A stretch of 64,000 nt of DNA. Source: an uncultured Bacteroidales bacterium (GTDB lineage: Bacteria; Bacteroidota; Bacteroidia; Bacteroidales; P3). The position numbers and the translations under genes were made by a program. How positions within the stretch are numbered: the stretch's first letter is position 1; each line of letters begins with the position of its first letter. The stretch is taken from contig ONBK01000001.1 in the NCBI GenBank assembly GCA_900316055.1, positions 344,015 through 408,014 on the forward strand. The letters run 5' to 3'. This document shows, one piece after another, positions 1,088 through 61,949 of this stretch. The notes under the pieces were generated by a model, which had not been told where the DNA came from, did no database searches, and worked only from the letters and a program-made list of their open reading frames with translations.

Positions 1088-2839
1088 GTGGAACACAGGA
1101 ACAACATACTCAAGATAGAGAACCTGTCGGTATCTTTCGACGGACGGACAGTAGTAGAAGGCCTGAACCTCAGCCTCGAGCGAGGGAAGACCCTTGGTAT
1201 CGTGGGTGAAAGCGGCAGCGGCAAGAGCGTCAGCTCATTGGCGCTGATGGGATTGCTCCCAAAAAACGCCTCCGTCAGCGGACATGCTTGGATGGACGGC
1301 ACCGACCTGCTCACCCTCGACGAAGAGGGTTTCCGAGCCATCCGCGGCAATCGTATCTCGATGATTTTCCAAGAGCCCATGACCTCACTCAACCCCGTGC
1401 AGAAATGCGGGGCACAGGTTCTCGAAATGCTGAAAGCCCATCAGAATACTCCGAATAATCAGAGTACTCCGATGACTCCCAAAGAACGCGTTATCGCGCT
1501 CTTTAAAGAGGTGCTCCTCCCCCGCCCTGAGAAGATTTTCGACAGCTACCCCCATGAAATCAGCGGCGGTCAGAAGCAGCGTGTGATGATTGCGATGGCT
1601 CTCATCAACCACCCCGACATCCTCATCGCCGACGAACCCACCACAGCCCTCGATGTCACCGTACAGAAGACCATCCTCGACCTCCTCCGCTCACTCCAGC
1701 AGAAACACGGCATCAGCATCATCTTCATCACCCACGACCTCGGTGTCATCAGCCAGATTGCCGACGATATCTTAGTGATGTACCGTGGACACATGGTAGA
1801 ACAAGGTCCTGCCGCAGAGATCCTACAACATCCGAAAGAGCCCTATACACAAGGCCTGCTGGCTTGCCGCCCTCCCCTCGACAGCCGACCCGAAAGACTA
1901 CCAACGGTGGAAGACTATCTTTCGAATGAAGAAGTAAAAATGAAGAATGAAGAATTGGCAGACACAACAAATAATTCAACATTCGACATTAAACATTCAA
2001 CATTAGTCACCGTCAAGGACTTGACGGTGGAATATACTCTGAAGAAGAGCCTCTTCGGAAAGCCTCTGCAGACCCTCAAAGGTGTCGACGGCATCTCGTT
2101 TGACATCATGGAAGGAGAGACCCTTGGCCTCGTGGGAGAGAGCGGATGCGGCAAGAGCACCCTCGGGCGCGCCCTGCTGCGTCTCATCGACCATAGCGAC
2201 GGGAGCATCCTCTATCGCGGGCGCCCCCTCGACACCCTCAACGCCAAGGAGATGCGTTCCCTACGTCCCAAACTGCAGATTATCTTCCAAGACCCCTACT
2301 CTTCCCTTAATCCAAGAATCACCATCGGCGACGCGATAAGTGAACCCTTGATGGTTCACAAAGGTGAAAAGTTAAAGGAGAAAGGTGAAAGCCATGATAT
2401 CCACAACACTATTTCACCTCTCACCTCTCACCTCTCACCCAAAGAGCGTGTCTGCGCTCTCATGCAGCAAGTGGGCCTCAATCCCGACTGGTACAACCGC
2501 TACCCTCACGAACTCAGCGGCGGTCAACGCCAACGCGTCTGCATCGCCCGTGCCCTCATCCTACAACCCGAGTTGGTGGTTTGCGACGAGAGCGTCTCTG
2601 CCCTTGATGTCAGTGTGCAGGCACAGGTGCTCAATCTCCTCAACGACCTCAAGCGCCAGTACCATTACACCTACCTCTTCATCTCCCACGACCTCAGTGT
2701 AGTAAAATTCCTCTCCGACCGCATCATGGTGATGCAGCAAGGCCGCATCGTGGAGCAAGGCACCCCGGACGACCTCTTCGCCCATCCGAAGACCGACTAC
2801 ACACGCACCCTCATCGAGGCCATCCCTCGCATCAAGTAA
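1088..2839 (+). CDS. Fused double-ATPase ABC protein (DppD-DppF type)
   Basis: Two complete ABC ATPases of the oligopeptide/nickel importer class in one 583-residue chain. NBD1 has Walker A GESGSGKS (40-47), signature SGGQKQR (159-165) and Walker B ILIADEP (178-184). NBD2 has Walker A GESGCGKS (350-357), LSGGQRQR (477-484) and [11 protein letters not shown]. Each NBD ends in the oligopeptide-type tail ([22 protein letters not shown]). No permease or binding protein is nearby. The start is GTG at 1088; no ATG is close. The inter-NBD linker (about 279-306) and a loop of NBD2 (about 424-451) are encoded by heptad repeat tracts. Confidence 0.92.
1925..1959 (+). repeat. Heptad tract in ABC linker (sense-strand stops)
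   Basis: Five 7-bp units based on AATGAAG. Units 1, 3 and 4 are exact. Units 2 and 5, where the TGA would be in frame, read AAGTAAA and AATTGGC instead. Confidence 0.85.
1974..2008 (-). repeat. Heptad tract in ABC linker (antisense stops)
   Basis: Five 7-bp units based on ATTCAAC (complement GTTGAAT). With the tract at 1925 it makes an imperfect inverted pair separated by 14 bases. Confidence 0.8.
2362..2389 (+). repeat. Heptad tract in ABC NBD2 (sense-strand stops)
   Basis: Four units based on AGGTGAA. Unit 2, where TGA would be in frame, is AAGTTAA; unit 3 differs by one base. It encodes [10 protein letters not shown]. Confidence 0.85.
2411..2438 (-). repeat. Heptad tract in ABC NBD2 (antisense stops)
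   Basis: Four units, three of them perfect CTCTCAC (complement GTGAGAG). It encodes [10 protein letters not shown], the same ten residues as the mnmE tract at 12011. It forms an inverted pair with 2362-2389 across a 21-base loop. Confidence 0.9.
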
Positions 2840-2852
2840 TCAAAGGAAAAAA

Positions 2853-4570: not shown

Positions 4571-4596
4571 CAGAAATCTCAATTCCTAATTGATTA
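4568..4596 (-). repeat. Irregular heptad tract at the rpsP stop
   Basis: On the minus strand the rpsP stop TAA is followed by 7-bp units of the type ATTAGGA and ATTGAGA, each with a stop triplet. The period is less regular than at other loci and it merges into the hairpin. Confidence 0.5.
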
Positions 4597-5160
4597 AGCC
4601 TCGGCGGGAGCCTCGGTTTCAGCGGGAGCTTCACCTTCGGTGTTCTCGGCGGCAGCAGCAGCTTCGGCCTCAGCCTTAGCGGCAGCTTCAGCCTCGGCGG
4701 CAGCCTGACGCTTGGCGGCGACGGCGGCAGCCTTAGCCTCGTTAGCCTTCTTCTCGGCCTCGAGACGAGCCTTCTTGGTGTTGCGGACGTTGTTCTCAAC
4801 GTCGCTCTTCTTGCTGTTTATCTTAGCCTCTTTGGCCTGCAGCCACTCGTTGAAACGCACATCGGCGGTCTCTTGGCTGATAGCACCCTTCTCAACACCA
4901 ATCTGAAGGTGACGACGGAGCAGGACGCCCTTATAGCTGAGGATGCGACGCACGGTGTCGCTGGGCTGGGCACCATTCTTCACCCATTCGACGGCGCGGT
5001 CGAAGTTGAGGTCGATGGTGGCAGGGTTGGTCAACGGATTGTAGGTGCCAAGCTTCTCGATAAATCTTCCATCTCGAGGTGCACGACCATCCGCAACAAC
5101 GATGTGGTAGAAAGGCTGATTCTTTTTACCATGACGCTGAAGTCTAATTCTTGCTGGCAT
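4594..5160 (-). CDS. rpsP: 30S ribosomal protein S16 with long Ala/Glu tail
   Basis: The first 80 or so residues are canonical S16 ([47 protein letters not shown]). The chain runs to 188 residues, about twice the usual bacterial length. The extra part continues with [21 protein letters not shown], then a Lys-rich helix ([18 protein letters not shown]) and an Ala/Glu run ending TEAPAEA. Extended S16 is known in Bacteroidota; this tail looks like a flexible or helical acidic arm on the ribosome surface. Confidence 0.95.
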
Positions 5161-5260: not shown

Positions 5261-5307
5261 ACACTAAAAAACGGCACCATACCTTCCACCTATCATCACC
5301 CTGTCAT

Positions 5308-5386
5308 CACCGTACCAACTCCTACCGTGGTAGGAGTTGGTACGGTGTTAGGACGGTGTTAGGACGGTGTTGGTACGGTGTTGGTG
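5308..5386. repeat. Palindromic element with 11-bp tandem units
   Basis: A perfect 19-bp inverted repeat (5308-5326 with 5329-5347, GT centre) runs directly into four 11-bp units from 5342: two ACGGTGTTAGG and two ACGGTGTTGGT. The left side, read on the minus strand, continues with degenerate 11-mers such as ACGGTGATGAC to about 5270. The element is therefore symmetric with helical-turn periodicity. Confidence 0.9.
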
Positions 5387-7247: not shown

Positions 7248-7252
7248 ATCTT

Positions 7253-7285
7253 TAAACGTTAAACTTTAAACGTTAACCGTTATTA
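7253..7285 (-). repeat. Stop ladder after the M3 peptidase gene
   Basis: The peptidase stop TAA (7285-7283) is followed by five TAA triplets (7282, 7275, 7268, 7261, 7254), 7 bases apart, in units such as TAACGTT and TAAAGTT. Confidence 0.9.
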
Positions 7286-9319
7286 GAGCATTCCTTTACG
7301 TTTCAATAGAGCCTTGGGGCTGGGGTCTTTGCCGCGGAAAGCGCGATAGAGTTCCATAGGCTCGACAGTGTTGCCGCTCTCAAGAAGGTGGCGGAACTTC
7401 TTAGCGAGCTCGGGGTTGAAGAGGTCGCCGCTCTCAGCGAAAGCCTCGAAGGCATCGGCATCGAGGATGGCGGTCCAGGTGTAGCTATAGTAGCCGGCAT
7501 CATAGCCCGTGGTGAAGACATGCTGGAAGTAGGGCGAATGGTAACGGCTAATAATCTCGGGGATGAGGCCGATCTTCTTCATGGCCTGTTCCTCGAACTG
7601 CACCGGGTCGATATGACGGGTCTCTTTCATCGTGTAATAATCCATATCCAGCAACGAAGCAGCCAACGTCTCAACGGTGGCGAATCCCTGACCATAGGTG
7701 GCGGCAGCCTCAATCTTCTTAATGAGGGCATCGGGGATGGGTTCACCGGTCTTGTAGTGCTTGGCGTACATCTTCATCACCTGCGGATGACGACACCAGT
7801 TCTCCATAATCTGAGAAGGCAGCTCGACGAAGTCACGCGGCACATTGGTGCCGGCCAACGAGGGATAGGTACACTTGGAAAGCAAGCCGTGGAGGGCGTG
7901 ACCGAACTCATGGAAGAGTGTTTCGCTCTCGTCGAAGTTGAGCAGCGATGGTTTGTCGGCCGTAGGCTTGGTGAAGTTGCACACCACCTGGATGATGGGG
8001 ATGATGTTCTCACCCTTCTGGTTGCGATACTGGCCGCGGAACTCGGTCATCCAAGCACCGCTGCGTTTGCTGGCGCGCGGGTGGAAGTCCATATAGAGGA
8101 TACCTATGGTCTGCTTGCCATCCTTTACCTCGAAGCAACGGGCCTCTTTGTCGTAGTTGGGCAGGTCGGTGCGCTCAGTAAATGTCAGTCCGTAGAGTTT
8201 GTTGGCCACCATGAAGGCACCTTCACGGACGCTATCGAGGCAGAAATAAGGACGCACCTCTGCATCGTCGATGGCATATTTCTCCACGCGGTATTTTTCG
8301 GCATAGTAGCGCCAATCCCAGGGCTGAAGTTTGGCACCGGGCACGTCTTTTTCGAGCATCTTCTGATAGATGTCGCGTTCCTGCTTGGCCACCTTGAGGG
8401 CTGGCCCCCAGACGTTATTGAGGCAATCATAGACAGCCGAGGGCGTCTTGGCAAGGCAATCGTCGAGTACATAGTCGGCATGTGTGGGGAAACCAAGGAT
8501 ATTGGCACGTTCGAGACGCAGGTTGACGATAGAGTCGATAATCTTGGTATTGTCGAACTCGCCCTCCTTGCACCTGTCGGCATAAGCATGCCACACCTCT
8601 TCGCGGAGCTTACGGTCGGCGCAGGTCTGCATGAAAGGTTCCCAGGTGGGAATATCAAGGGTTACCTTACCACCATTGGGCAGTTCTTTGCTGTAGGCAT
8701 TGGTAGCCTTCAGCACGTTCTGAGCAAAACGCATGGTGAGAGAGGCTATCTGCTCGTTGATTTGACGGAAGCGTTCTTGCTTCTCGGTAGGAACGTTGGC
8801 GCCACCGCGCACGAAGCCTTTGTAGGTCTCCTCCAAAAGGCGAGCCTGTTCGGGATTGAGATTAAGACTCTCGCGCTGCTCGTAGACAGCCTTGATACGA
8901 TCGAAGAGTTTAGCATTGAGAGCAATGTCGTCACCATGGGCGGCAAGCATCGGAGTTACCTTCTCTTCAATGGCCTCCATCTCATCGCTGTTCTCACACT
9001 CGCTGAGGTTGAAGAAAACGGAGCTAACCTCTTTTAGCAACTGCCCGCTGTACTCGTAAGCCAAGATGGTGTTCTCGAAAGTGGGAGCTTCTGTGCTGTT
9101 CACGATAGCATCGATTTCGGATTTCTGCTGACGGATGCCTTCTTCAAAAGCGGGCATGTAGTGTTCCGGCTTGATGCGCGAGAAGTCGGGAATGTTGTAG
9201 GGTGTGTTCCATTCGGCGAAGAACGGGTTCGCAGTGTCGTTCATGTTGTTTGACTGTTTGTTTTGGCAGCCAACGGCCAGCAAGGTGGCCGCGGCGGCGA
9301 GGAATAATGTGTGTTTCAT
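7283..9319 (-). CDS. dcp: M3 family peptidase lipoprotein (dipeptidyl carboxypeptidase/oligopeptidase A type)
   Basis: Zinc metallopeptidase of 678 residues. The N-terminal lipobox LLAVGC (C18) indicates a lipid-anchored envelope form. The HEFGH zinc motif sits near residue 470 in FHEFGHALHGLLS, and the typical M3 segments MDFHPRASKRSGAWM and YTWTAILDADAF flank it. It probably trims short peptides in the periplasm. The choice of dcp over prlC rests on general resemblance (GYYSYTW and PSPKALLKRKGM near the C-terminus). It ends in a heptad stop ladder. Confidence 0.9.
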   Translation of the reverse strand: MKHTLFLAAAATLLAVGCQNKQSNNMNDTANPFFAEWNTPYNIPDFSRIKPEHYMPAFEEGIRQQKSEIDAIVNSTEAPTFENTILAYEYSGQLLKEVSSVFFNLSECENSDEMEAIEEKVTPMLAAHGDDIALNAKLFDRIKAVYEQRESLNLNPEQARLLEETYKGFVRGGANVPTEKQERFRQINEQIASLTMRFAQNVLKATNAYSKELPNGGKVTLDIPTWEPFMQTCADRKLREEVWHAYADRCKEGEFDNTKIIDSIVNLRLERANILGFPTHADYVLDDCLAKTPSAVYDCLNNVWGPALKVAKQERDIYQKMLEKDVPGAKLQPWDWRYYAEKYRVEKYAIDDAEVRPYFCLDSVREGAFMVANKLYGLTFTERTDLPNYDKEARCFEVKDGKQTIGILYMDFHPRASKRSGAWMTEFRGQYRNQKGENIIPIIQVVCNFTKPTADKPSLLNFDESETLFHEFGHALHGLLSKCTYPSLAGTNVPRDFVELPSQIMENWCRHPQVMKMYAKHYKTGEPIPDALIKKIEAAATYGQGFATVETLAASLLDMDYYTMKETRHIDPVQFEEQAMKKIGLIPEIISRYHSPYFQHVFTTGYDAGYYSYTWTAILDADAFEAFAESGDLFNPELAKKFRHLLESGNTVEPMELYRAFRGKDPSPKALLKRKGML

Positions 9320-10827: not shown

Positions 10828-12133
<1,306 letters not shown>

Positions 12134-12147
<14 letters not shown>

Positions 12148-12664
12148 CGGCAGAGTTGTCGTCTTTTGATTCTTTATTCTCCGAAATATACTTGTCGCCA
12201 AAGAGCTGCTTCATCTCCTCGTCGGCGAGACCCAGCTCCACCTTGATGCGGTAGATGTTGGGATAAGCCAAGAAGAGCGTAAGGGTAGCCACAAGGGCCA
12301 GCATCAGCAGCACATTGTTGTTGGAGAGCACCATGAAGAGGCAGATGATGACCACAACGGCGAACATAGTGAGGTAGAGCGAGCGAATATGAGATACATA
12401 GCCGACAATCTTCTCCTCGACACTCTCGGCCTGTCGCAGACGAGGAATCTGCTTGCGAATGGTCAACAGCGCCATACTCACTGCCAGCACCGCCAGCACG
12501 CTGCCGGCGATGAGCATCCAACGACTCGTATGGTCGGTCTGCGTGAAACGCATAGGACTGGCATAGAGAAAGAACGAGGCGAGGATAACCATCGCCACAG
12601 AACCCCAGAGACCCGTCTGTGAATAACGGCGAATTTTCTTGATTTCGTTTTCTAAATTTTTCAT
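12134..12664 (-). CDS. Four-TM membrane protein of unknown function
   Basis: A protein of 176 residues from ATG 12664. That ATG overlaps the uvrA stop in an ATGA, so translation is probably coupled; the longer frame from 12703 is less likely. Four hydrophobic segments: GLWGSVAMVILASFFLYA, WMLIAGSVLAVLAVSMALL, LYLTMFAVVVIICLFMVL and VLLMLALVATLTLFLAYP. The C-terminal tail is acidic (KESKDDNSADEAE). No family was recognised. Placed between uvrA and mnmE, it overlaps the mnmE start by 14 bp. Confidence 0.75.
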
Positions 12665-15444
12665 TTTAATTTTAGATATTTTGCAGTATAAGATTCTTTG
12701 CAATCGAGGAGGTTCTCCGGAGTGCCAGCAAAAACCACGCGGCCACCTTCGTCACCACCCTCAGGACCCATATCGATGACCCAGTCAGCCACCTTGATGA
12801 TGTCGTGATGGTGCTCGATAACCACGATAGAGTGGCCTCGCTCAATGAGTCGGTCGAACGCTGCGAGGAGCTTCTGGATATCGTGGAAGTGGAGTCCTGT
12901 GGAGGGTTCGTCAAAGATAAAGAGCATCGGCTGCTCAGCCTCTCCTTTGACGAGGTAGGAAGCCAACTTGATACGCTGGCATTCTCCACCCGAGAGCGAG
13001 CTGGAGGACTGACCCAGCATCAGGTAGCCGAGTCCCACATCCTGCAAGGGTTTCAACCGTGTGTAGATGGATTGTGTGTCGTCATCATCGAAGAACTCGA
13101 GGGCCTGATCGACAGTCATTTCGAGAATTTGACTGATATTCTTTCCTTTATAAAGCACCTCGAGAGCCTCGTCCTTGTAGCGGGAGCCATGACATTCGTC
13201 GCAAATCAGATGCACGTCGCTCATAAACTGCATGCTCACGGTGACTTGGCCTTCACCCTGACAGTTCTCGCAGCGACCTCCTTCGACGTTGAACGAGAAG
13301 AATCCTGCCTTGTAGCCACGGGTTTTTGACAACGGCTGCTTGGCATAGAGTGCACGCACCTCGTCGAAGACCTTCATATAGGTAGCGGGATTGCTGCGCG
13401 AGGAGCGGCCGATGGGATTTTGGTCGACCATCTCGACAGCCGAAATTCGCGGCACATCGCCATCCATCGCCACACAGCTGCCCACATAGTCGGAAGCTCC
13501 TTCAAAGCGATGCTGAAGAACATCGTAGAGCACCCGTCGGATAAGACTCGTCTTGCCACTGCCGCTCACGCCGGTAACCACCGTCATCACCCCCAGAGGA
13601 ATATCGACATCGATATGCTTGAGGTTGTTGCAGTAGGCTCCGTGGATAGAAATACGATCGCGCCAACGGCGACGGGTAGTGGGAACAGAGATATTCTTGC
13701 GTCCCAACAGATAGTCGGCGGTCAACGACCGCTTGGCTTTCTTCAGGTCAGAAGGCTTGCCTGCAAACACCACCTCGCCCCCAAGACGACCTGCCCCAGG
13801 GCCGATGTCGATAAGGTAGTCGGCAGCACGGATGATATCCTCGTCGTGTTCCACCACAATAACGGTATTCCCGAGGTCGCGCAAACGCTTCAGGACACCA
13901 ATTAACTGACCGGTGTCACGCGAATGGAGACCTATGGAAGGCTCGTCGAGTATATACATCGAGCCCACCAACGAACTGCCTAACGAAGTAGCCAGATTGA
14001 TACGCTGGCTTTCGCCACCACTGAGGCTGTTGCTCAAGCGGCTGAGGGTGAGGTAACCTAATCCCACGTCGACGAGGTAACCCAGACGATTCTTGATTTC
14101 TGCAAGAAGACGTTCAGTGACGGCACACTCGTGGGGCGTCAGTCGACTCTCGATATCACGAAACCATTCCACCAACTTCGACACCGACATCTCCGTGAGT
14201 TCGCTGATGCTGCAACCGTCAATTTTCACATAATTGGCATCCTTACGGAGCCTGTATCCCTGACATTCGGGACATACCGTGCGACCACGATAGCGCGCCA
14301 GCATCACTCGGTATTGTATCTTATAACTCTGACTCTCCACCCAGCGGAAGAAGCCGTCGATACCCTCCCACGTGCCGTCACCATGCCAGAGGAGGTCTTT
14401 CTGCTCTGGAGTGAGTTCGTAGTAGGGTTTATGTATCGGGAAGTCAATCACCGCAGCGTGGCGGATGAACTCGCGCTTTACATCCTGCATCTTGTCGCCG
14501 TTCCAGCATACGATGGCATTCTCGTAGATGCTGCGGCTTTTGTTCGGCACCACCATATTCTCATCGATGCCGATAACGCTGCCATATCCCTGACAAGTGG
14601 GGCAGGCGCCATAAGGGTTGTTAAAGGAAAAGAAGTTGGGATTGGGCTTCTCAAAAGTGATGCCGTCGGCCTCAAAGCGGTTGGAGAAATCTGCCGTCGA
14701 GCCGTCAACCACAACAATGCGACACTGTCCGCGTCCTTCGAAGAAGGCGGCCTGCACACTCTCAGCGATGCGGGCTCGCTGCTCGTCGTCATCGGGACGA
14801 ACCTCCAGTCGGTCGACAACAAGGTAAACCGCGCCATCAAGCGTTCCCCCATTCAAGCAATCCTCTATGCGAACCACCGTTCCTTTCACCATCACACGCT
14901 GATAGCCCTCCTGATGCAGAATCTCCAATTGCAACCGCAGCGGACGCTCCTTGCTGTCCTCCAACAGCGCCAGGATCATCACCTTCACACTTTCCCTTTC
15001 ACCTTTCACCTTTGACCTTTCACCTAAGATAAAGTCCACTACTTCGCTCACCGAATGTCTCTTCACTTCTACCCCACTCACGGGCGAGAAGGTGCGGCCA
15101 ATGCGGGCGAACATCAACTTCAGATACTCATAAATCTCGGTGCTGGTGCCTACGGTGGAGCGGGGATTGGAGGTGTTGACCTTCTGCTCGATGGCGACTG
15201 CCGGTGAGAGTCCGTGGATATAATCCACCTCAGGCTTGGTCATACGCCCCAGGAACTGGCGGGCATAAGAGCTCATGCTCTCCACATAGCGGCGCTGTCC
15301 TTCGGCAAACAAGGTGTCGAACGCCAGCGACGACTTGCCGCTGCCGCTCAAGCCGGTCACAACCACCAACTTGCCCTGTGGAATTTCCACATCGACATTT
15401 TTCAGGTTGTTCGCCCTTGCCCCTTTTATGAAAATCTTATCCAA
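12661..15444 (-). CDS. uvrA: Excinuclease ABC subunit A
   Basis: DNA damage recognition ATPase, 927 residues. Two ABC ATPases with Walker A GLSGSGKS and GVSGSGKT, signatures [12 protein letters not shown] and [12 protein letters not shown], and zinc clusters including CPTCQGYG and CENCQGEGQ with a later CDECHG. The start is TTG at 15444 ([16 protein letters not shown]); the preceding in-frame codons are AGG GTT after a TAA, so no ATG is possible nearby. A heptad tract encodes the surface loop [15 protein letters not shown] (about residues 140-154). It may work with Mfd, encoded at 18.7 kb. Confidence 0.96.
14983..15024 (-). repeat. Heptad tract in uvrA (sense-strand stops, phase-edited)
   Basis: Six units based on GGTGAAA on the uvrA sense strand. 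Units 1, 3 and 4 are exact. Units 2 and 5, the ones whose TGA would be in frame, read GGTCAAA and GGGAAAG. Confidence 0.9.
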
Positions 15445-15451: not shown

Positions 15452-15495
15452 TAATCGCTAATCTTTAACCATTAATTTTTAAACGTTAAACGTTA
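15452..15495 (-). repeat. Seven-unit stop ladder between the 15493 gene and uvrA
   Basis: On the minus strand TAA or TAG occurs at 15495, 15488, 15481, 15474, 15467, 15460 and 15453, exactly 7 apart. The first is the stop of the upstream gene; the last lies 9 bases before the uvrA TTG start. Confidence 0.95.
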
Positions 15496-16986
15496 CTTCA
15501 TCACCGCCATCCGGCATTTGTTTCCGCGGAACGAAAGCAGCACCCAGCTGCCGTCCATTCGCTGACCGAAGCTGGCCAGCGTATGTTTCGTCGCTTTCTC
15601 GAGGATAGACTTTGTCACATCGCCCTCGGCACCAATCTCGTAGAGCACCAGGTTCGACTTGTCGCCCACCTCATACTCGTCAGCCTCCTCGGTGATGATA
15701 TACTCCGCAGGTTCATCACAGTCCTCGTTTTTCATCACATAGGCCTTGTCATCCACAGCGAACATCTTGAGGTCTATCAAATCGTCGGTCATCTCGTTCT
15801 TGTCGTTGCGCCTCAGGTTACGCACCCACTTCACTGTGCCTATCGTATCAAAAGCCACCAGATGGATACCCTGACCATAGTACGAGTTGGTCACAGTACC
15901 ATTGGCGTTCACATAGCGGAGGTGGTGACGGTGTCCCACAGCCGCCACAGCGCCATAAGGCATGCGGATACTGCCCAACGGCGCAATCATAGGCATATCC
16001 TGATCGCGCTGCACCTTCTTGGTGTTCTTGTTCAACAGGATATTCTTGTCTTCGTTCTGGAAGAAGCGCATCTTGAAGCTCGCCATCGCCCCTGAATCGA
16101 CATCCATCACCATCGTCACCACTCCACTCGTCAGGTTCTCGTCGGGATCGGCCGTTGTCATCGTCACCAAACCCATGCATAGCAACTTCTTCCCTATCAC
16201 ATTGGCAATCCGCAGGTCGTGCACGGGATCGCACTGCACATCCAAACGGTAGCTGTTGGCAGAAGATTGATTCATCACGTTCGACAGGAAACGCTCGCCG
16301 TTGCTCGTGCGCTCCGTACCCAAAGTATACACCGTTCCCTCGTCGTCCACATAGATGTCCTCCATGACTCCCACGCCATAGTCTTTGGCCCACACCACGT
16401 TGAGATTCTCGTCGAACACCTTCGTCACCGAGATATAATCCTTGCGCTCCGTATACTGCACAATGGTCAGCACGGCGAGGTACCTCCCATTGGGCGACAC
16501 CGCGCTCCACACTCTGCTGCGGTCCTTACGTCCATAGGTGTAGCTGTCCACAGTATCCATCCCCTCCATCAGACGCAACGTATCTGTCGACAGACGGGCG
16601 CGCAAAAGGGTCGTCCTGCCCTTCGCACTACTGTCCACCAGCATCACTGAAGCTTTGTGGATGCCGCTGGCGTTCTGCTGGCAACCCAAGGCTCCCAGCA
16701 CCTTGCAATTCTGGGTCTCGGGCAGATCTGCACATTCCATCGGAACCAACACATCGCCGAACTTCACCACATGCCAGTCGCGTTTGTTCGCGAGGCCCTT
16801 CACGCCGTCGGCGCTTCGCGTCAACCAGATATCCAGCCCTTCGAGCGAACCCAGGTAGTGGGCATTTATCATCATGTCGGCCTCCACTTTCTTGCTCTCC
16901 TCACCGACCAATGTCAGTCCTTCTTTCTGCCCCCAGACGCTACCCAGCGCCATCATGGCAGCAACCGTCAGTAATAATTTCTTCAT
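15493..16986 (-). CDS. Secreted protein of unknown function, beta-propeller-like
   Basis: A protein of 497 residues with a signal peptide (MKKLLLTVAAMMALGSVWG). The remainder is rich in repeated beta segments of the form (V/I)-x-D-x-(N/D)-G-(T/E/N)-V with NLNVVWAKDYG, YVDDEGTVYTLG and FDTIGTVKWVRNL, which suggests a propeller of repeated four-stranded sheets. No catalytic motif was recognised and no T9SS C-terminal domain is present. It lies between porX and uvrA in the same orientation, and its stop codon is the first unit of a seven-heptad ladder. Confidence 0.65.
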   Translation of the reverse strand: MKKLLLTVAAMMALGSVWGQKEGLTLVGEESKKVEADMMINAHYLGSLEGLDIWLTRSADGVKGLANKRDWHVVKFGDVLVPMECADLPETQNCKVLGALGCQQNASGIHKASVMLVDSSAKGRTTLLRARLSTDTLRLMEGMDTVDSYTYGRKDRSRVWSAVSPNGRYLAVLTIVQYTERKDYISVTKVFDENLNVVWAKDYGVGVMEDIYVDDEGTVYTLGTERTSNGERFLSNVMNQSSANSYRLDVQCDPVHDLRIANVIGKKLLCMGLVTMTTADPDENLTSGVVTMVMDVDSGAMASFKMRFFQNEDKNILLNKNTKKVQRDQDMPMIAPLGSIRMPYGAVAAVGHRHHLRYVNANGTVTNSYYGQGIHLVAFDTIGTVKWVRNLRRNDKNEMTDDLIDLKMFAVDDKAYVMKNEDCDEPAEYIITEEADEYEVGDKSNLVLYEIGAEGDVTKSILEKATKHTLASFGQRMDGSWVLLSFRGNKCRMAVMK

Positions 16987-17009
16987 AATCTTTATCTATT
17001 CAATAAATC

Positions 17010-17055
17010 TCTAATCTTTAAACTTTAACCGTTAGACGTTAACCATTACCCTTTA
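17010..17055 (-). repeat. Seven-unit stop ladder at the porX stop
   Basis: TAA/TAG at 17055 (the porX stop), 17048, 17041, 17034, 17027, 17020 and 17013 on the minus strand, exactly 7 apart. The four bases between them vary. Confidence 0.95.
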
Positions 17056-18609: not shown

Positions 18610-18637
18610 ACTATTATCTATTATCTCTTATCTATTA
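18610..18637 (-). repeat. Heptad tract in the porX 5' leader
   Basis: Four units of the type TAATAGA/TAAGAGA on the minus strand, ending about 10 bases before the porX ATG. This tract precedes a start rather than following a stop. Confidence 0.85.
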
Positions 18638-26667: not shown

Positions 26668-29600
26668 TCATTTTACCACCACCACTTTCCGCGCCGGACG
26701 GTCGCCGACTTTCACAAGGTAGACGCCGTTGGGGATTGCTTGATTGCTTGATTGCTTGAATGTCTGAGTGAGGCGGCCGACCATGTCATAGACCTGCACC
26801 TCATCGGATGTACCGTCAACCACGATGCGGCCGTCCATAACCCATAACCTATAACCCATAACCTCTAAGTCGTCGATGCCCTCGGTGCCGAGGAAGTGGA
26901 CGTGGAAGGTGAGCTCGGTGCCGTTCTCTTGGATGTTGGTTATTTCGAAGGAGGTTTCCGGCGTGCCGTCGGTGAGGTAAGGGTGCGGGTCGGTCGTCGG
27001 ACCGAACGAGGTGCGGCCCTCTGCTTGGCAGAAATGAGCGTGCCAGATGTCACCTTGCACCGTGTCGATGGCGCTGCCCGGACGGAAGATCCAGTATTGG
27101 TTTGCCCGGGTGTGGAAGTCGAAGAAGGCATTGGCGAACATGCCGTCGTAGCCCGCCGGCACAGTGTCGTTCCACCGGGCCACGATGAGACCGGTGCCGG
27201 GGAGGCCATCCTCAAAGAGATCGGCCTGACGACGGTACTCGAAGACAAACCACTGCGTGGGGTCGATGGCGGAGCGGATGTAGTAGCAGTTCTGCGAGGG
27301 GCTGGAACCCGCGCTTTGCAGCGTGTAGTCGCCGTCGACGGTAATCTCTATCGGGTCGTCAGCCACATGGAGAACCTTGTTCTTGTAGATGGCCGCCGTC
27401 TGGTTGTTCACATAGGAGCCTTCCATCATATCCCAGTTGCCGGCCTGCGAGAGATCCATATAATTGATGTAATGGTACAGGTCGGGCATGTTGAGCGAGT
27501 GTCCCATCTCGTGGCGGAACACAAGGGTGTTGAAATATACTTCGCCAGCACCCTCAAACTCGAAGTTGAAAGTATTGGGCCGCACGCCGTTGAGGGTGAC
27601 GGTATAGCCGAGCGAGTCGTGGGGGAAATACTCCATGTGCGGCCAGAGGATGGAAGCCCAGCCACCGGTGCCACCTTTGACGATGAAGCTGATGTTGTCG
27701 ATATCGCCGTCACCGTCGCCGTCGAGCACCACCGAGGAATTGACCAGATGCAGCGAATCGACATAGCGGACAGCACGTCCCAGCAACTCGGCTTCGCGCA
27801 TCGAGACGCCCATGAACGGCTGCTCCCAGGGCTGAAAGCCGATGGGGTTCTCCACGCTGTCGTAGGGCTCGAAATAGCAGCGCGGCATCGGGTCCTGATA
27901 GGATATTATCGTGCCGTTAAGGATATTGTTGGGGTAGACAGTGTTGTAGTGGATGTTGCCGTAGGAGAGGGCATCGAAGAAGTTGTAGACGCTCAGGTAG
28001 CCAGGCGTGCGGCCGTTGAACATCGAGTCGATGTCAGCGAAGGGGTGGTCAATCTCCTCGTCGTCGGCGAAACGCAGGAAGATGACGAGGTTGGTGAGCG
28101 CATTGCTGTCGACGTCAGTCGGGTCGGAAGTCAGGCCCGCTAGGGGATTGATTTTGCCCCAGCCCCAGAGGTTGCTGCCGCTGGCAGGAAGGGTGCCGGT
28201 GAGGCTGTCGGTGCGGCCGGTGTGGTGGATGAGAGCGAGGGCGGAGTCGTAGCGCAGCTGCGGGTTCTGCTGCAGCCAGAGGGCCATGATTCCGGCTGTG
28301 GCAGGCGATGCCATCGAGGTACCCTGGGCGGCACCATAGAAGGCGGTGTCGCCGTTGAAGAGGGTATAGTCGGAGCAGTAGAGGGAGTGTACATAACTGT
28401 CGCAGTAGCGGTTGATGGAGGAGACGATGTGCTGGCCGGGGGCACAGACATCGGGCTTGGTGCGGAGGTCGAGGGTGGGACCGTGGGAGGAGAAGTAGGT
28501 CAGGTTGCCCTGCTCCTCGATGCCCATGCTGAGATTGCCCCCACCAACGTATGGCCACGAGGTGGCGGTGGTGTAGGCGCCGACGGTGATGATGGAGTTG
28601 GCGGTGCCGCCAATCTCGCCCACGGTGCAGTCGGTGTTGCCATCCGTCACACCCGGCAGGCCGTCGCTGACGAAGGTGACTCGGTCGCTCCAGACGTGGA
28701 CATTGGCCTGTGTGGTGCTCTTGAGGAAGAGGACGACGCGGTAGGTGTCGGTGGCGATGGGCCGGTTTGTGAGTGTTAGGGTGATGTTCTGTCGGTTGTT
28801 GAAGGGATTGGTGCCGTTGCAGGCAAACTCGCAATAGGTCTTATCCAGATATATTGAATCGTCATAGACCCCCGTCGCACTGGAGTTGTACCACGGAGTG
28901 CGGCCCAGGGTGTCACCCGAGGCGGTGTCGATGACGCCCACGCTGACCGCGAAGGGGCTGTTGACGGTACTCCAGAGGTCGATAGTGGCCTCTACCCTAC
29001 CGGCATTGTAGTTAACGAAAGAGCATGCCGTTGTGTCTTCGGCGGTGAAGGACTTGTAGAGGTGCAGTTTGTTGCTGCCCTCGTTGCCGGCGGAGCCCAC
29101 CACGAGGAAGCCTTCGGGGTACTGCGCATGGAGGCCGTCCATCATGCGGTCGAGCGACGAGGTGCCGTCGTGGGGACCCTCATGTGTTCCAAGACTCATG
29201 TTGATTACGCAAGGCTTGCCCACCGAGGCGGCATAGGCGCGAATATAGGCGATGCCGTCGTAGATGCCTGGAAGAGAGGCCATACTCACCATCACAATGT
29301 CGGCATTGGGAGCCATACCACGATAACGGCGGCCGATGCTGTCGGGACCGCCGCAGCCGGCAGCGATGCCTGCGACGTGGGTGCCGTGGAAGCCGTTGGG
29401 GTTGTCGGTCTGTGCCGCAAGTATCTCGCTCTCGGTGGCGAGCTCACGACCGTAGCTGTAGCCCGCCGGGGCTGTGCCGATGGTGTCGCCCTGTATCCAG
29501 GCGCGCTTGATGCGCAGGGTGGTACCCGTCGAGTCGTAGAAGGCGGGGTGGCTGTACTGGAAACCACCGTCGATGATGCCCACCACCACGCCGGTGCCAT

Positions 29601-30564: not shown

Positions 30565-30584
30565 TGTGATATTGTTTTATTGTT

Positions 30585-30602
30585 TCTAATTCCTAATTTC
30601 TA
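30585..30602 (-). repeat. Stop ladder at the small TM gene stop
   Basis: TAG at 30602 (own stop), 30595 and 30588 on the minus strand. The related unit AATGAGA at 30606-30612 lies within the coding part. TCTAATT-type heptads. Confidence 0.88.
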
Positions 30603-30770
30603 ATTTCTCATTCCTTGCAACAGCACATCCTCCTTGATGAATCGGGCGAGGGTGCGGTGGCTCTCCTTCAGCCTATACCTATAATATATAATAACTGCCA
30701 CCAAACCCACGACCAGAAGGACGAAGGCGGCAGCCAATGCCACTGTTAGGATGAAAGTAATGCTATTCAT
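30600..30770 (-). CDS. Small single-TM protein (56 aa)
   Basis: Translation begins MNSITFILTVALAAAFVLLV, continues VGLVAVIIYYRYRLKESHRT and ends with RFIKEDVLLQGMRN. One N-terminal membrane helix (about 5-30) and a basic cytoplasmic tail. A good promoter box (30794-30801) lies 23 bases upstream, which supports a real gene. The last residues and the stop are inside a heptad tract, so the C-terminus may be set by the repeat. No known family was recognised. Confidence 0.65.
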   Translation of the reverse strand: MNSITFILTVALAAAFVLLVVGLVAVIIYYRYRLKESHRTLARFIKEDVLLQGMRN

Positions 30771-32533: not shown

Positions 32534-32607
32534 CAAATAATACCCAAATAGCCAAATGATTTTCATTCCGCCCCTCTGTTTGGATAATGTTAACTTGCTT
32601 ATATATT

Positions 32608-32675
32608 CATTTGTTGTTCGTCTGTTGTTCGTTTGTTGTTCGTTTTTTAATCGAACAACAGACGAACAACAAATG
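32608..32675. repeat. 24-bp perfect inverted repeat built of 11-bp units
   Basis: Arms 32608-32631 and 32652-32675 are exact reverse complements; the loop is 20 bases. Left arm plus loop are 11-mers of the form T(T/C)TGTTGTTCG (32610, 32621, 32632). The right arm repeats them inverted. Confidence 0.95.
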
Positions 32676-32755
32676 TGTATCAGATGTGCAAAAGAGCTAC
32701 TATATAGTGTCCTACACTAATGTTGGCCCAATTAAGTAAGTTATACGGAAACAAG

Positions 32756-32784: not shown

Positions 32785-32828
32785 TATCGAATTATTCTTG
32801 CAAATAACTACTATCTAGCAACTTACAT

Positions 32829-32862
32829 CTTAGTTCTTAGTTCTTACTTCTTAGTTCTGCTA
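32829..32862 (-). repeat. Stop ladder at the PepSY-like gene stop
   Basis: Own stop TAG at 32862, then TAA at 32853, 32846, 32839, 32832 and 32825, 7 apart, in units of the type TAAGAAC. The first gap is 9. Confidence 0.92.
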
Positions 32863-48783: not shown

Positions 48784-48804
48784 TCCCTTATTCCTTATCG
48801 TCTA
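48784..48804 (-). repeat. Stop ladder at the dacB stop
   Basis: Own stop TAG at 48804, then TAA at 48797 and 48790 on the minus strand: three units, three frames. Confidence 0.85.
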
Positions 48805-50283
48805 ATAAATCGAGGCAATTTTCTGCAATATCTTATTGAGTTTCTCAGAGACCACCGAGGCGGAACAGTTGTGACCGTTGCTGATGATGGCGAAGGCCAG
48901 ACGGTCACCGTTGGCGGCGTCGACATATCCGGCATAGGCTTTCACACCACTGATAGTGCCAGTCTTGAGACGCACGATGACACCCGGAACTGAGACCTTA
49001 ATTTTCTTGGCGGTGCCACTCTCTCCTGCTACCGCCAGTGTGTTGTAGAAATCTTCAAAAAAAGGCTCTCGACTGATGGCCATCAAGTAGCGGCAAAGGA
49101 AGTCGGAGGTGACGCGATCCTGCGGCGAGAGACCACTGCCGTCGACGACCTTCACTCCGTCAGCATCAATCTTCTTCTCCTTGAGCCATTCCATTACTGC
49201 CTTGCTGCCATTGGCAAAGGTACCCTTTCCATACTGAGCGTAGCCCAGGTATTTGAAGATAGCTTCGGCATAGATGTTATTGCTGGTGATATTGGTGTAT
49301 TGGGCAATGGTGTAGTAGTCGCTGCTATAGTAGTCGAGGACTGTCCGCAGGCTATCAGGCTGGGTGTAGACCTGCATGGAGTTCGACGAGATGCTGATTC
49401 CGTGGGTACGGAGGTAGGAGGCGAAAAGGTCCGCACACTGACGACCGGGATTGGGCAACGAAATTCGGACAGAGAAGTCCTTTTCTCCCAGCGGAACTGT
49501 GCCACGATAAACGCGTTCTTTTGATGTGGGACTACCGTAGGCAATCACTTGGTCGCCTGATTTCGCAGGTCCTGTGGTCACCTCGCAGACAGCTTGCACG
49601 TCGATATTCTTAGGGACCGTGCGTACCGCTGTGGCGGGGAAACCCACCCTCAAACCAGGATCAAAATGAGCGAAGTACATATTCTCATGGAAGTTGAGTC
49701 CATAGACACCGGCACCATAGTAGTTACCGACATCGCCCCACGGCCAGCTGTCGTGGAGAGGAACCTCGTCGAAGATACCTTGATGATAGCAAACCCGGCC
49801 ATCGACACGATGGACACCTTTCTTTTTCAGCGCCATCATCCAGCCCTCGAAAAGCGAATCCACCGAGGTCTGGCGGTAGCGATAGGAACCCAGCAGCGGG
49901 TCACCGCCACCGATGATATAGATATCTCCGTGCAACACTCCGTCGCGGTCGACGGTGCCACGAAGGCAGAGACGCGTGGTGAAGCGGAACTTACTCCCCA
50001 GACGGGCAAAACCCACACCGGTAGTAAGCATCTTGTTCACCGAGCCGGGAGCCATTCCCATCTGCGAGTTGTAGTCATATACCTGCTTATGCTTAGTAAT
50101 ATTATAGACGCTAACGGCAAGGGTACCATGCTGCAGTACAGCGTCACGCTGGGTAGCTACGACAGTTTTCTCAAGCTCGGAAATCTGCTGGGCACATGCC
50201 GAATTGAAAATTGAAAATTGGAAATTAAGAACAACGCCAGCGCAAACTATCAATTTAAATATGCGAGATGTTTTATATGGCAT
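48802..50283 (-). CDS. dacB: D-alanyl-D-alanine carboxypeptidase/endopeptidase (PBP4, DacB type)
   Basis: Class C low-molecular-mass penicillin-binding protein, 493 residues. SVNK (SxxK, near residue 81) in GMAPGSVNKMLTTG, SNN (SxN) near 333 in NITSNNIYAEAIFKYLG, and KTG near 438 in RLKTGTISGVKAYAGYV. Trims peptidoglycan in the periplasm. The end of the signal peptide (LNFQFSIFNSACAQ) is encoded by a heptad tract at 50202-50229. It follows engB by 9 bp. Confidence 0.94.
   Translation of the reverse strand: MPYKTSRIFKLIVCAGVVLNFQFSIFNSACAQQISELEKTVVATQRDAVLQHGTLAVSVYNITKHKQVYDYNSQMGMAPGSVNKMLTTGVGFARLGSKFRFTTRLCLRGTVDRDGVLHGDIYIIGGGDPLLGSYRYRQTSVDSLFEGWMMALKKKGVHRVDGRVCYHQGIFDEVPLHDSWPWGDVGNYYGAGVYGLNFHENMYFAHFDPGLRVGFPATAVRTVPKNIDVQAVCEVTTGPAKSGDQVIAYGSPTSKERVYRGTVPLGEKDFSVRISLPNPGRQCADLFASYLRTHGISISSNSMQVYTQPDSLRTVLDYYSSDYYTIAQYTNITSNNIYAEAIFKYLGYAQYGKGTFANGSKAVMEWLKEKKIDADGVKVVDGSGLSPQDRVTSDFLCRYLMAISREPFFEDFYNTLAVAGESGTAKKIKVSVPGVIVRLKTGTISGVKAYAGYVDAANGDRLAFAIISNGHNCSASVVSEKLNKILQKIASIY
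50202..50229 (+). repeat. Heptad tract in the dacB signal-peptide region
   Basis: Four units based on AATTGAA, antisense to dacB. It encodes LNFQFSIFN, so the repeat forms part of the hydrophobic export signal. Confidence 0.92.
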
Positions 50284-59981: not shown

Positions 59982-60013
59982 AAGTGATTAGTTGACAGTT
60001 GACAGTTAATAGT
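59979..60013 (+). repeat. Heptad stop tract after the HndB-like gene
   Basis: Stop TAA at 59979, then TGA at 59993 and 60000 and TAA at 60007, 7 apart, in AGTTGAC-type units. Confidence 0.88.
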
Positions 60014-60041
60014 TGGCAGTGCTTCGCAGCCTGGCAGCAGC

Positions 60042-60074
60042 CAACTACAAACTACCAACTACAAACTACCAACT
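60042..60074 (-). repeat. Inverted heptad tract before the hydB-like gene
   Basis: Five units CAACTAC/AAACTAC, the near-complement of the tract at 59990. The pair can fold into a hairpin with a loop of about 24 bases inside the operon. Confidence 0.88.
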
Positions 60075-60088
60075 GAAAAAAAAAGATT

Positions 60089-61903
60089 ATGGCAAAATAC
60101 AAAATGCATATTCTGATCTGCGGCGGCACGGGATGCAAATCCTCCAACAGCCTCCAGATTATTGAGAACTTCCAGAAAATCCTGGCCGAGAAGGGTCTCG
60201 CCGAAGAGGTTCAAGTCATCAAGACCGGTTGCTTCGGCTTCTGCGAGAAGGGCCCAATCGTGAAGATCATGCCCGACAACACCTTCTACACTCAAGTGAA
60301 GCCCGAAGACGTGGAGCGTATCGTCAACGAGCACATCATTAAAGGTCGTAAGGTCCCCGAACTGCTCTACACCAATCCCGAGAACAAGGAGCACGTCAGC
60401 GACTCGAAGCACATGGACTTCTATCGCAAGCAGATTCGTATCGCCCTGCGCAACTGCGGCTTTGTGGATCCCGAGAACATCGAGGAGAGCATTTCCCGTG
60501 GCGGCTACGAGGCTCTGGCCAAGTGCTTGACCGAGATGACCCCGCAGCAGGTTATCGACGAGATCACCAAGTCCGGTCTCCGTGGCCGTGGCGGTGCCGG
60601 CTTCCCCACCGGTGTCAAATGGGGTCTCTGCGCCAAGAACCAGGCCGACCAGAAGTACATCATCTGCAACGCTGACGAGGGCGACCCTGGTGCTTTTATG
60701 GATCGTTCCATCCTCGAGGGTGACCCCAACAGCATCGTCGAGGCTATGGCCATCGGCGGCTACGCCATCGGTGCCACAAAGGGTCTCGTGTACATCCGTG
60801 CCGAGTATCCTCTGGCCATCGAGCGTTTGAAAATCGCCATCAACCAGGCTCGCGAGTATGGCCTCCTCGGTGAGGACATCCTTGGCAGCGGCTTCAACTT
60901 TGATATCGAGCTCCGCTACGGTGCCGGCGCTTTTGTCTGCGGCGAGGAGACTGCATTGATTCACTCCATGGAAGGCCAGCGCGGCGAGCCCACCTTGAAG
61001 CCCCCGTTCCCCGCTGTCCGCGGCTATATGGACAAGCCCTCGAACGTGAACAACGTCGAGACCTTCGCCAATATCCCCATCATTATCACCAAAGGCGCCG
61101 ACTGGTTCCGCACCATCGGTACCGAGAAGTCGCCCGGAACAAAGGTGTTTGCCCTCGCCGGCCAGATTAACAACGTGGGTCTGATCGAGGTTCCCATGGG
61201 CATCACCCTGCGTGAGATTATCTATGAGATTGGTGGCGGTATCAAGGACGGCAAGGAGTTCAAGGCCGTTCAGACCGGCGGTCCTTCCGGCGGCTGCCTC
61301 ACTGCCAAGCATCTCGACACCGAGATTGACTACGACAGCCTCGTGGCTGCCGGCTCGATGATGGGCTCCGGCGGTATGGTCGTCATGGATGAAACCTCTT
61401 GCATGCCTGCCATCGCCAAGTTCTATCTGGAGTTCACCTGCGAAGAGAGCTGTGGTAAGTGCTCGCCCTGCCGTATCGGTAACAAGCGCCTCTGCGAGAT
61501 GCTTGAGAAGATTACCGACGGTCGCGGTACGATGGAAGACCTCTATGCCCTCCGCAACCTGGCCGCCGTCATCAAGGACAGCGCTCTCTGCGGTCTCGGC
61601 CAGACCTCGCCAAACCCCGTCCTCTCGACCCTCGACAACTTCTGGGACGAATATGTGGAGCACGTCGTCGACAAGAAGTGCCGTGCCGGCGTCTGCAAGA
61701 AACTCATGCAGTATGTCATCGACGCCGAGAAGTGCATCGGCTGCGGCAAGTGCCAGAAGGGTTGCCCCGCCGAGGCTATCAGCCGTACCGACTATATCGC
61801 TCCCGGTCACAAGTTGGCTTCGATGGTCATCGACGCCACCAAGTGCATCAAGTGCGGCGCTTGCATCGGCAACTGCAAATTCGGTGCTATTTCGGTTAAA
61901 TAA
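60089..61903 (+). CDS. hydB: NuoF-like NAD(P)-binding hydrogenase subunit (HydB/HndC-like)
   Basis: A protein of 604 residues. The N-terminal thioredoxin-like [2Fe-2S] domain has GGTGCKSS and KTGCFGFCEKGP. The flavin/NAD-binding NuoF core contains GLRGRGGAGFPTG and ICNADEGDPGAFMDR. The 4Fe-4S site is EESCGKCSPCRIG. The C-terminal 2[4Fe-4S] ferredoxin (from about 547) has CIGCGKCQKGC and CIKCGACIGNC. FMN- and NADH-binding subunit of electron-bifurcating or NAD(P)-linked [FeFe] hydrogenase. It lies between the HndB-like gene and hydA. Confidence 0.95.
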   Translation: MAKYKMHILICGGTGCKSSNSLQIIENFQKILAEKGLAEEVQVIKTGCFGFCEKGPIVKIMPDNTFYTQVKPEDVERIVNEHIIKGRKVPELLYTNPENKEHVSDSKHMDFYRKQIRIALRNCGFVDPENIEESISRGGYEALAKCLTEMTPQQVIDEITKSGLRGRGGAGFPTGVKWGLCAKNQADQKYIICNADEGDPGAFMDRSILEGDPNSIVEAMAIGGYAIGATKGLVYIRAEYPLAIERLKIAINQAREYGLLGEDILGSGFNFDIELRYGAGAFVCGEETALIHSMEGQRGEPTLKPPFPAVRGYMDKPSNVNNVETFANIPIIITKGADWFRTIGTEKSPGTKVFALAGQINNVGLIEVPMGITLREIIYEIGGGIKDGKEFKAVQTGGPSGGCLTAKHLDTEIDYDSLVAAGSMMGSGGMVVMDETSCMPAIAKFYLEFTCEESCGKCSPCRIGNKRLCEMLEKITDGRGTMEDLYALRNLAAVIKDSALCGLGQTSPNPVLSTLDNFWDEYVEHVVDKKCRAGVCKKLMQYVIDAEKCIGCGKCQKGCPAEAISRTDYIAPGHKLASMVIDATKCIKCGACIGNCKFGAISVK

Positions 61904-61949
61904 AGAATAGTATAACTAGAAAATCTAGAGCATCTAGAAAATCTGGAAT
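61901..61949 (+). repeat. Nonamer tract at the hydB stop
   Basis: After TAA (61901) and TAG (61908), four 9-bp units based on ATCTAGAAA run from 61914 to 61949 with TAG in three of them. Confidence 0.85.

What the first reader, a model, noticed from the sequence alone, without database searches (positions are those of the whole stretch)
1925..61949. Window-wide family of heptad 'stop ladder' tracts
About 30 short tracts share a strict 7-bp period (two 9-bp and one 8-bp case), yet their unit sequences differ (GTTGAGA, GGTGAGA, TAACGTT, AATTGAA, CTTAGTT, TCTAATT, CCATAAC and others). The common property is that nearly every unit holds TAA, TAG or TGA at the same place on one strand: (T[A/G][A/G]NNNN)n. 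Since 7 mod 3 is 1, three units close all reading frames. They resemble the heptameric STRR repeats of cyanobacteria in period, but a stop triplet as the conserved core is a feature I do not know to be described. Function (translation barrier, transcript 3' end signal, slippage product) is inference.
Basis: partly seen in the sequence, partly recalled or inferred. Interest (0 to 1): 0.9.

Follow-up and report, generated by a model that had tools for sequence, protein, structure and literature searches.

The report
Heptad repeats sorted by reading frame
A rumen bacterium's genome is littered with short repeats seven letters long that sit both between genes and inside loops of conserved proteins, and the stop signals seen in them look mostly like a side effect of where such repeats can survive, not a brake on translation.

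Summary
The 7-bp period is real: 28 tracts in the window against 2.85 in shuffles, and 77 in 404 kb of the same contig against 0. The genome belongs to a Bacteroidales genus in which the sampled species differ in repeat density and in favoured period (7, 8, 9 or 11). The stop ladder is real as a description: runs of four or more stops at 7-bp spacing, 176 against 8.2. But the excess is confined to spacers, is carried mainly by TAA/TTA, shows no significant strand bias away from real stop codons (sense-only 26, antisense-only 19), and is mostly matched by shuffling letters within units (45 of 48 against 40.4). Coding tracts show no excess. I read it as a heptad load sorted by reading frame, not a translation barrier. 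More interesting: one multi-unit block reads GERLKVKGE in the same frame in 23 of 23 contexts examined (of 25 found), and 12 of 36 protein indels against the nearest relative lie on short tandem repeats.

The parts
1936..2004 (+). Two heptad tracts (1936-1955 AATGAAG type; 1974-2004 ATTCAAC type), in roughly inverted relation, between the two ATPase domains of an ABC transporter gene (1088-2839 +)
   Evidence: Pfam ABC_tran, two stretches; close pair listed
2360..2439 (+). Composite in the same gene: purine-rich heptads (2360-2391, peptide GEKLKEKGE), short linker, inverted TCACCTC heptads (2414-2439, peptide SPLTSHLSP)
   Evidence: lies at aa 425-451, within the second ABC_tran stretch 334-502; coincides with an indel against G055
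7252..7282 (.). Spacer tract (TTAAACG/TTAACCG type, TAA on both strands) abutting the 3' end of the M3 peptidase gene 7283-9319 (-)
   Evidence: Pfam
11549..11586 (-). Heptad tract (GAGTTGA)5.4 inside mnmE (10828-12147 -), peptide LSTLNSQLSTLN; relatives have the same length here, so it replaced sequence rather than lengthening it
12009..12042 (-). Heptad tract (GAGGTGA)4 in a variable loop of mnmE, peptide SPLTSHLSP; other species have different units or none at this loop
14995..15025 (-). Heptad tract in the uvrA-like gene (12661-15444 -), peptide [11 protein letters not shown]106 has nearly the same block at the same place
15452..15495 (-). Spacer tract running onto the stop codon of gene 15493-16986 (-)
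17006..17055 (-). Spacer tract running onto the stop codon of gene 17053-18600 (-)
18611..18637 (.). Spacer tract CTATTAT upstream of gene 17053-18600 (-)
26835..26863 (-). Heptad tract CCATAAC inside a subtilase gene (26668-30027 -), near its C-terminus
30583..30615 (.). Spacer tract CTAATTC/CTAATTT, upstream of gene 30034-30564 (-)
32819..32858 (.). Spacer tract TCTTAGT next to the 3' end of gene 32860-33903 (-)
50202..50226 (-). Heptad tract AATTGAA inside the S13 peptidase gene (48802-50283 -), aa 20-28
59990..60074 (.). Composite in a spacer: AGTTGAC heptads (59990-60014), linker with GCTTCGCAG, inverted AACTACA heptads (60043-60074)

Best explanation
The tracts are a lineage-specific load of seven-base tandem repeats (some species favour 8, 9 or 11). 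They arise by a repeat-making process, most likely replication slippage plus some copying of multi-unit blocks between loci, and are then sorted by purifying selection on reading frame. Inside genes only arrays survive that leave the used frame open and change length by whole codons; they sit in tolerant loops and their stops end up antisense or out of frame. Spacers have no such filter, so AT-rich units with TAA/TTA can grow there. Where a tract overlaps a gene's own stop codon, copies of that codon recur at +7, +14 and +21. The stop ladder is therefore mostly a by-product. Shown: the period, both locations, the frame rule in the cases examined, lineage turnover, no significant strand bias away from real stops. 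Inferred: the slippage and copying machinery, and that the remaining TAA/TTA excess in spacers has no translational role.
For: Period 7 far above shuffles. 46 spacer and 38 coding tracts on one contig; units with stops on both strands 31 of 46 in spacers, 0 of 38 in genes. Sense-only and antisense-only stops do not differ significantly away from real stops. Stop set not top in genes, and matched in spacers by a set sharing only TAA. Different units or periods, or none, at the same mnmE and uvrA loops in 14 relatives, with homoplasy on the gene tree. 12 of 36 indels of 3 aa or more against G055 lie on tandem repeats of period 7, 8 or 9. One block recurs in one frame in 23 of 23 contexts examined; order variants 25 against 5.
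Against: A spacer excess of stops remains after permuting letters (either strand 45 of 48 against 40.4, P 0.011; both strands 23 against 10.8, 0 of 2000), and stop-core letters vary less in own and G055 spacers; frame sorting does not predict this. Tracts overlap real stop codons more than uniform placement gives (38 of 133 against 23.8, maximum 37 of 1000). Some tracts have an inverted partner, which slippage alone does not explain.
Confidence: 0.65

Rival explanations
1. Functional stop ladder: spacer tracts are kept because they supply stops in all frames after gene ends and act as a translation barrier.
For: Stops at +7, +14 and +21 of real stop codons: 16.9, 16.5 and 14.3% against 6.7%. 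Spacer units exceed GC-matched heptamers in stops. Tracts denser in co-directional spacers (1.0 per kb) than divergent (0.42) in own. Just after stops (+3 to +30) sense-only 9, antisense-only 3 (P 0.15).
Against: No significant strand bias overall away from the real stop (26 and 19); 15 of 16 tracts in divergent spacers also carry stops; no ladder shared at 39 orthologous gene ends; TAA carries the signal; PMC6764699 (abstract) finds no selection for extra stops in eubacteria.
Confidence: 0.08
2. Binding site: tracts bind a protein or RNA regulator, as MacGregor proposed for TAACTGA repeats upstream of start codons.
For: Period-7 signal is raised in roughly the 35 nt after stops and 10-40 nt before starts.
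Against: 37 distinct units among 84 tracts on one contig, turnover between species, and many tracts inside conserved proteins.
Confidence: 0.07
3. Small mobile composite element: heptad arm, GC-rich tip (GCTGACGCA, GCTACGCAG or GCTGCCGC type), inverted heptad arm, inserted as a unit in spacers and in frame in genes, comparable to Rickettsia palindromic elements.
For: Inverted partner nearby: own coding 9 of 66 against 3.6, own spacer 18 of 83 against 8.0, G055 coding 5 of 29 against 1.4. Tip motifs: 25 hits on the 3' side and 5 on the 5' side of 511 merged tracts, 2.9 expected each. Recurring block in unrelated genes.
Against: Most tracts have no partner or tip; G055 spacer 2 of 24 against 0.8 is weak; no constant sequence in the arms; tests were made after seeing examples; no transposase tied to it, own has only two weak Y1 matches; mnmE tract 2 shows no insertion.
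Confidence: 0.2
4. Local slippage alone: each tract grew from a heptamer already present, and shared units only reflect shared codons and composition.
For: At the mnmE loop several relatives without an array have the seed CACCTCTC for His-Leu-Ser; tract 2 involves no length change in any of the 15 aligned rows. Intact MutL does not speak against slippage of 7-base loops (inference).
Against: The same imperfect block with the same odd unit in 23 examined contexts, 25 against 5 for the other order; nearly the same uvrA block in the window species and distant G106; read-through codons TTA 21 and TCA 7 dominate the listed rows over TGG (6, one array) and CGA (2).
Confidence: 0.3

Closest known systems
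TAACTGA direct repeats of marine Beggiatoaceae, some Cyanobacteria and five Bacteroidetes (MacGregor 2015, PMC4679880; abstract, sections 9, 12, 24 and passages read)
   Same: Heptad arrays, mostly intergenic, stops in all three frames in one orientation; neighbouring arrays of other heptamers in some Bacteroidetes.
   Different: One unit there; here many units, none of them TAACTGA among the 37 on contig C26, and about half the tracts lie inside genes.
Heptanucleotide long simple sequence repeats (Mrazek 2007, seen only as described in passages of PMC4679880 and PMC4692102) and cyanobacterial STRR heptads (name recalled; three heptads of Calothrix mentioned in PMC4692102 passages)
   Same: Seven as the favoured unit length; slippage proposed.
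   Different: Coding tracts, block sharing and lineage-specific repertoires within one genus were not in the passages I read.
Tandem repeats of Borg elements (PMC9879509, passages read)
   Same: About half within ORFs, fast turnover, new peptide repeats.
   Different: Borg ORF repeats all have unit lengths divisible by three; here coding tracts have unit length 7 or 8 and the frame is kept by total length and altered units.
Rickettsia palindromic elements (search listing only; properties recalled)
   Same: In-frame inserts in conserved genes; some inverted structure.
   Different: Recalled as 100-150 bp elements; here short arrays, mostly unpaired, with no constant sequence.
Fail-safe or tandem additional stop codons (PMC6764699, abstract read)
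   Same: Extra stops after the real stop.
   Different: Spacing of 7, no significant sense bias outside overlap with the real stop, and not shared at orthologous ends.

Membership tests
Heptanucleotide simple sequence repeats | Tandem units of 7 bp dominate over other lengths | tested here: met
   77 of period 7 against 14, 13 and 10 of periods 8, 9 and 11 on C26, 0 in shuffles
Heptanucleotide simple sequence repeats | Copy number varies between strains (slippage) | not testable with these tools
   No strains of the species at hand; nearest relative about 79% identical
TAACTGA repeats (MacGregor 2015) | Unit TAACTGA | tested here: not met
   Absent from the 37 units of 84 tracts on C26
TAACTGA repeats (MacGregor 2015) | Just upstream of start codons | tested here: inconclusive
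   21 of 133 co-directional spacer tracts fall in the bin within 30 nt of the next start, 38 overlap the previous stop; earlier bins took precedence
Functional stop ladder | Stops preferred on the sense strand away from the real stop | tested here: not met
   Period 7: sense-only 26, antisense-only 19, both 49, neither 1; period 8: 6, 10, 3, 2
Functional stop ladder | Ladder kept at orthologous gene ends | tested here: not met
   Both 0 of 39; own only 8, G055 only 5
Borg-type tandem repeats | Coding unit length divisible by three | tested here: not met
   66 coding tracts of period 7 and 28 of period 8 in own, against 18 of period 9
Rickettsia palindromic elements | In-frame insertion in conserved genes | tested here: met
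   mnmE, uvrA-like and ABC transporter tracts in open frames
Rickettsia palindromic elements | Palindromic structure as a constant part | tested here: not met
   Inverted partner in 9 of 66 coding and 18 of 83 spacer tracts in own

The most novel reading that the evidence does not exclude
A genus-wide micro-mobile system: defined blocks of about four heptads, sometimes as inverted pairs around a GC-rich tip, are copied from tract to tract by templated repair or a dedicated enzyme, and keep inserting in frame into loops of conserved proteins (GERLKVKGE and SPLTSHLSP peptides), so that a frame-breaking repeat length becomes a main source of protein insertions in these bacteria.
Probability: 0.3. 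Interest if true: 0.8.

Novelty: new variant of a known kind. Interest (0 to 1): 0.55.

Why it matters
If right, repeats of a frame-breaking length (7) have become a common source of new peptide loops in core proteins such as MnmE and a UvrA-like protein; 12 of 36 larger indels against the nearest species lie on tandem repeats of period 7, 8 or 9. It offers a natural test of how reading-frame selection sorts repeats between spacers and genes, and warns that a striking stop ladder can arise without a translational role. The recurring blocks make the open question of how heptad repeats arise and spread testable by comparing strains.

Tried and rejected
Rejected: translation barrier. Rejected: loss of mismatch repair as the cause; a MutL match is present in own and in 56 of 59 genomes searched. 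Not supported: a Y1/RAYT transposase as mover; 45 of 59 genomes have matches, own only two weak ones, and G028, the densest in heptads of the 12 sampled, has one. Rfam and tRNA scans of the window gave nothing. A general TA-step preference is not supported: in spacer units TAC and ATA classes are depleted and TAA and TAG enriched, while TGA is within noise. Dropped: the idea that coding inserts come in 21-bp steps; inserts on period-7 tracts were 3, 4, 6, 7, 9, 9, 15, 16, 17 and 20 aa. Paper searches on heptads or tandem repeats in Bacteroidetes, Bacteroidales, Prevotella or rumen genomes turned up PMC4679880, PMC4692102 and PMC9879509 as useful; searches listed nothing.

Limits: gene calls come from my own codon-score caller, not a curated annotation, so tracts near gene ends may be misfiled. 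Units are not independent (shared descent). C22, C23 and C31 were chosen because they held pattern hits, so rates from the 864-kb sample are somewhat biased; C26 was taken because it holds the window. Inverted-pair and tip tests came after seeing examples. The repeat-indel overlap was compared only with a 1.6% repeat mask of the own sample, not formally tested. One 5-unit array is counted under both block orders. The row list was cut for the own genome, so its codon tally covers listed rows only.
Full report
WHAT WAS CHECKED. The window is C26:344015-408014 of a 2.43-Mb, 32-contig genome. The closest named relatives found with its MnmE protein (L006-L026) are Bacteroidales metagenome-assembled genomes, many from ruminant guts.

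THE PERIOD IS REAL. Scoring self-matches at each offset gives 14 strict segments of period 7 in the window and none for periods 4, 5, 6, 10, 12 and 13; loosely 28 against 2.85 in shuffles. On the sampled contig: 77 for period 7, 14 for 8, 13 for 9, 10 for 11, 2 for 6, with no period-7 segment in three shuffles. Runs of four or more stop triplets spaced by 7: 15 against 0.4 in the window, 176 against 8.2 in 864 kb; spacings 8 and 9 are also raised (43 and 40 against about 5).

MANY TRACTS ARE INSIDE GENES. Of 84 tracts on the contig, 46 lie in spacers and 38 in called genes. In the window these include an ABC transporter gene, mnmE, a uvrA-like gene, mfd (weak), a subtilase and an S13 peptidase. 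Of 66 own coding tracts the unit has a stop antisense only in 39, sense only in 8, on both strands in 3, on neither in 16. In the three sense-strand cases looked at closely the frame is open because one unit carries TTA in place of TGA.

LINEAGE TURNOVER. In an alignment of mnmE and uvrA with 14 relatives, at one mnmE loop the window species, G002 and G022 carry TCACCTC-type heptads, G045 an 8-bp unit, G019 and (by eye, below the detection threshold) G112 other heptads, and the rest none evident. At the uvrA loop the window species and G106 carry blocks differing at one base inside the array, G116 a 9-bp unit, and most others none. On the gene tree the window species and G106 lie far apart, and G055, sister to the window species, lacks the mnmE heptads. 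At mnmE tract 2 all 15 rows have equal length, so the array replaced existing sequence. Over 12 species sampled (40 to 864 kb each), period-7 density runs from 0 (G047, G029, G031) to 42 (G028) per 100 kb, while period 8, 9 or 11 leads in others. Between own and G055, 12 of 36 indels of at least 3 aa in 68 ortholog pairs lie on tandem repeats (4 of period 7, 8 of period 8 or 9); over four relatives 21 of 75. A weak repeat mask covers 1.6% of the own sample; I made no formal test.

IS THE STOP TRIPLET A CORE? For: in spacers 83 of 84 own tracts have a stop on some strand (the exception is poly-C) against 59.0 from GC-matched spacer heptamers (maximum 72 of 2000), and 55 have stops on both strands against 17.5 (maximum 31). 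G055 has 24 of 24, G028 37 of 38, G002 13 of 14, G009 1 of 2. Core A/T letters vary less: 6.1% against 12.0% in own, 5.5% against 16.3% in G055; without TTAA-type units 8.2% against 10.0% and 6.3% against 14.0%. Against: permuting letters within units gives 40.4 of 48 where 45 are seen (P 0.011; both strands 23 against 10.8 remains a clear excess), and for coding units 29.0 where 26 are seen. Among 36 relabelled triplet sets the stop set leads in spacers with 129 ladders, but a set sharing only TAA has 122; in genes the stop set, with 47, is tenth. The excess is mainly a TAA/TTA property of AT-rich spacer units. Units also tend to hold G or C but not both on a strand (38 of 48 against 25.6; coding 31 of 39 against 15.9). 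My inference is that T followed by two purines, a stop in three of four cases, is then hard to avoid.

REGISTER WITH REAL STOPS. Stop triplets recur at +7, +14 and +21 of real stops: 16.9, 16.5 and 14.3% against 6.7% on C26; 18.8, 15.4 and 9.1% against 6.0% in G055; 9.1, 8.7 and 4.5% against 4.4% in rumen relatives L006-L026; 5.9, 7.4 and 5.8% against 6.4% in 59 loci of other Bacteroidota; 12.4, 14.1 and 11.9% against 6.5% in the larger own sample. Tracts overlapping the real stop account for this: 38 of 133 co-directional spacer tracts, against 23.8 under uniform placement. Tracts not overlapping it have sense-only 26, antisense-only 19, both 49, neither 1 (P 0.37); in the bin nearest the stop the split is 9 and 3 (P 0.15), so a weak local sense bias is not excluded. 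Of 39 orthologous gene ends with room for a ladder, own alone has one in 8, G055 alone in 5, both in 0. A function in ending translation predicts otherwise.

BLOCKS SHARED BETWEEN GENES. The imperfect block GGTGAAAGGTTAAAGGTGAAAGGTG occurs 25 times in 10 of 99 genomes of the genus, 8 times in own; the order with the odd unit one place on occurs 5 times in 2 of 99, never in own. I examined 23 of the 25: all lie in an open frame giving GERLKVKGE, with flanks that look unrelated apart from one gene seen in three species. The other frames are closed by the block's own stops, so the single frame is forced wherever the block is coding; its recurrence, and the lack of any spacer case among the 23, are not. 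In the listed rows the odd codon is TTA 21, TCA 7, TGG 6 (one array), TAA 5, CGA 2, CTA, TCG and AGC 1 each, the rest TGA. This favours copying over repeated independent repair of the frame, but selection for leucine or serine is not excluded.

COMPOSITE FORMS. Some tracts have an inverted partner within 70 nt: own coding 9 of 66 against 3.6, own spacer 18 of 83 against 8.0, G055 coding 5 of 29 against 1.4, G055 spacer 2 of 24 against 0.8; same-orientation partners are near the control. The linker sometimes begins with GCTGACGCA, GCTACGCAG, GCTTCGCAG or GCTGCCGC: 25 motif hits on the 3' side and 5 on the 5' side of 511 merged tracts, 2.9 expected each. These are a minority and were tested after being noticed.

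LITERATURE. MacGregor 2015 (PMC4679880; abstract, sections 9, 12, 24 and passages) describes TAACTGA arrays that close all three frames, in five Bacteroidetes among others, and cites Mrazek 2007 for heptanucleotides as the commonest long simple repeats. PMC4692102 (passages) treats G-rich heptads; PMC9879509 (passages) Borg repeats whose coding units are multiples of three; PMC6764699 (abstract) finds no selection for extra stops in eubacteria. Rickettsia palindromic elements were seen only in a listing.

VERDICT. Observation confirmed. The stop-ladder reading holds as a description of spacer tracts, not as a function. Best account: a heptad repeat load with lineage-specific units, partly spread as blocks, sorted by reading frame. 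The residual TAA/TTA excess in spacers is unexplained.

Noticed in passing
window 5289-5385 and 32606-32680: Arrays of 11-bp units arranged as inverted repeats (hairpins) in spacers; 11-bp arrays also occur in relatives, several of them inverted (L006, L012, L021, L023), and 11-bp spacer tracts show no stop excess in own (7 of 18 against 10.6).
   Followed up: partly
window 4594-5160: Ribosomal protein S16 of 188 aa whose Pfam domain covers only aa 9-67; the rest includes a stretch encoded by imperfect 6-, 18- and 30-bp repeats.
   Followed up: no
window 42400-42434: A 9-bp tract (GTCCTTAAG, 3.9 copies) inside the class I tRNA synthetase gene 39724-43074.
   Followed up: no
window 61908-61959: A 9/18-bp tract (CTAGAAAAT type) in the short spacer between a NuoF-like gene and an iron hydrogenase gene.
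   Followed up: no
L022 10001-11470: MnmE of a yak-rumen relative carries a long insert in the G-domain region encoded by 8-bp CAACCTAT-type repeats.
   Followed up: no
G028 (sampled 100 kb): A same-genus species with 42 heptad tracts per 100 kb, almost all in spacers (38 spacer, 5 coding), and 46 matches of the GAGTTGA block genome-wide.
   Followed up: partly
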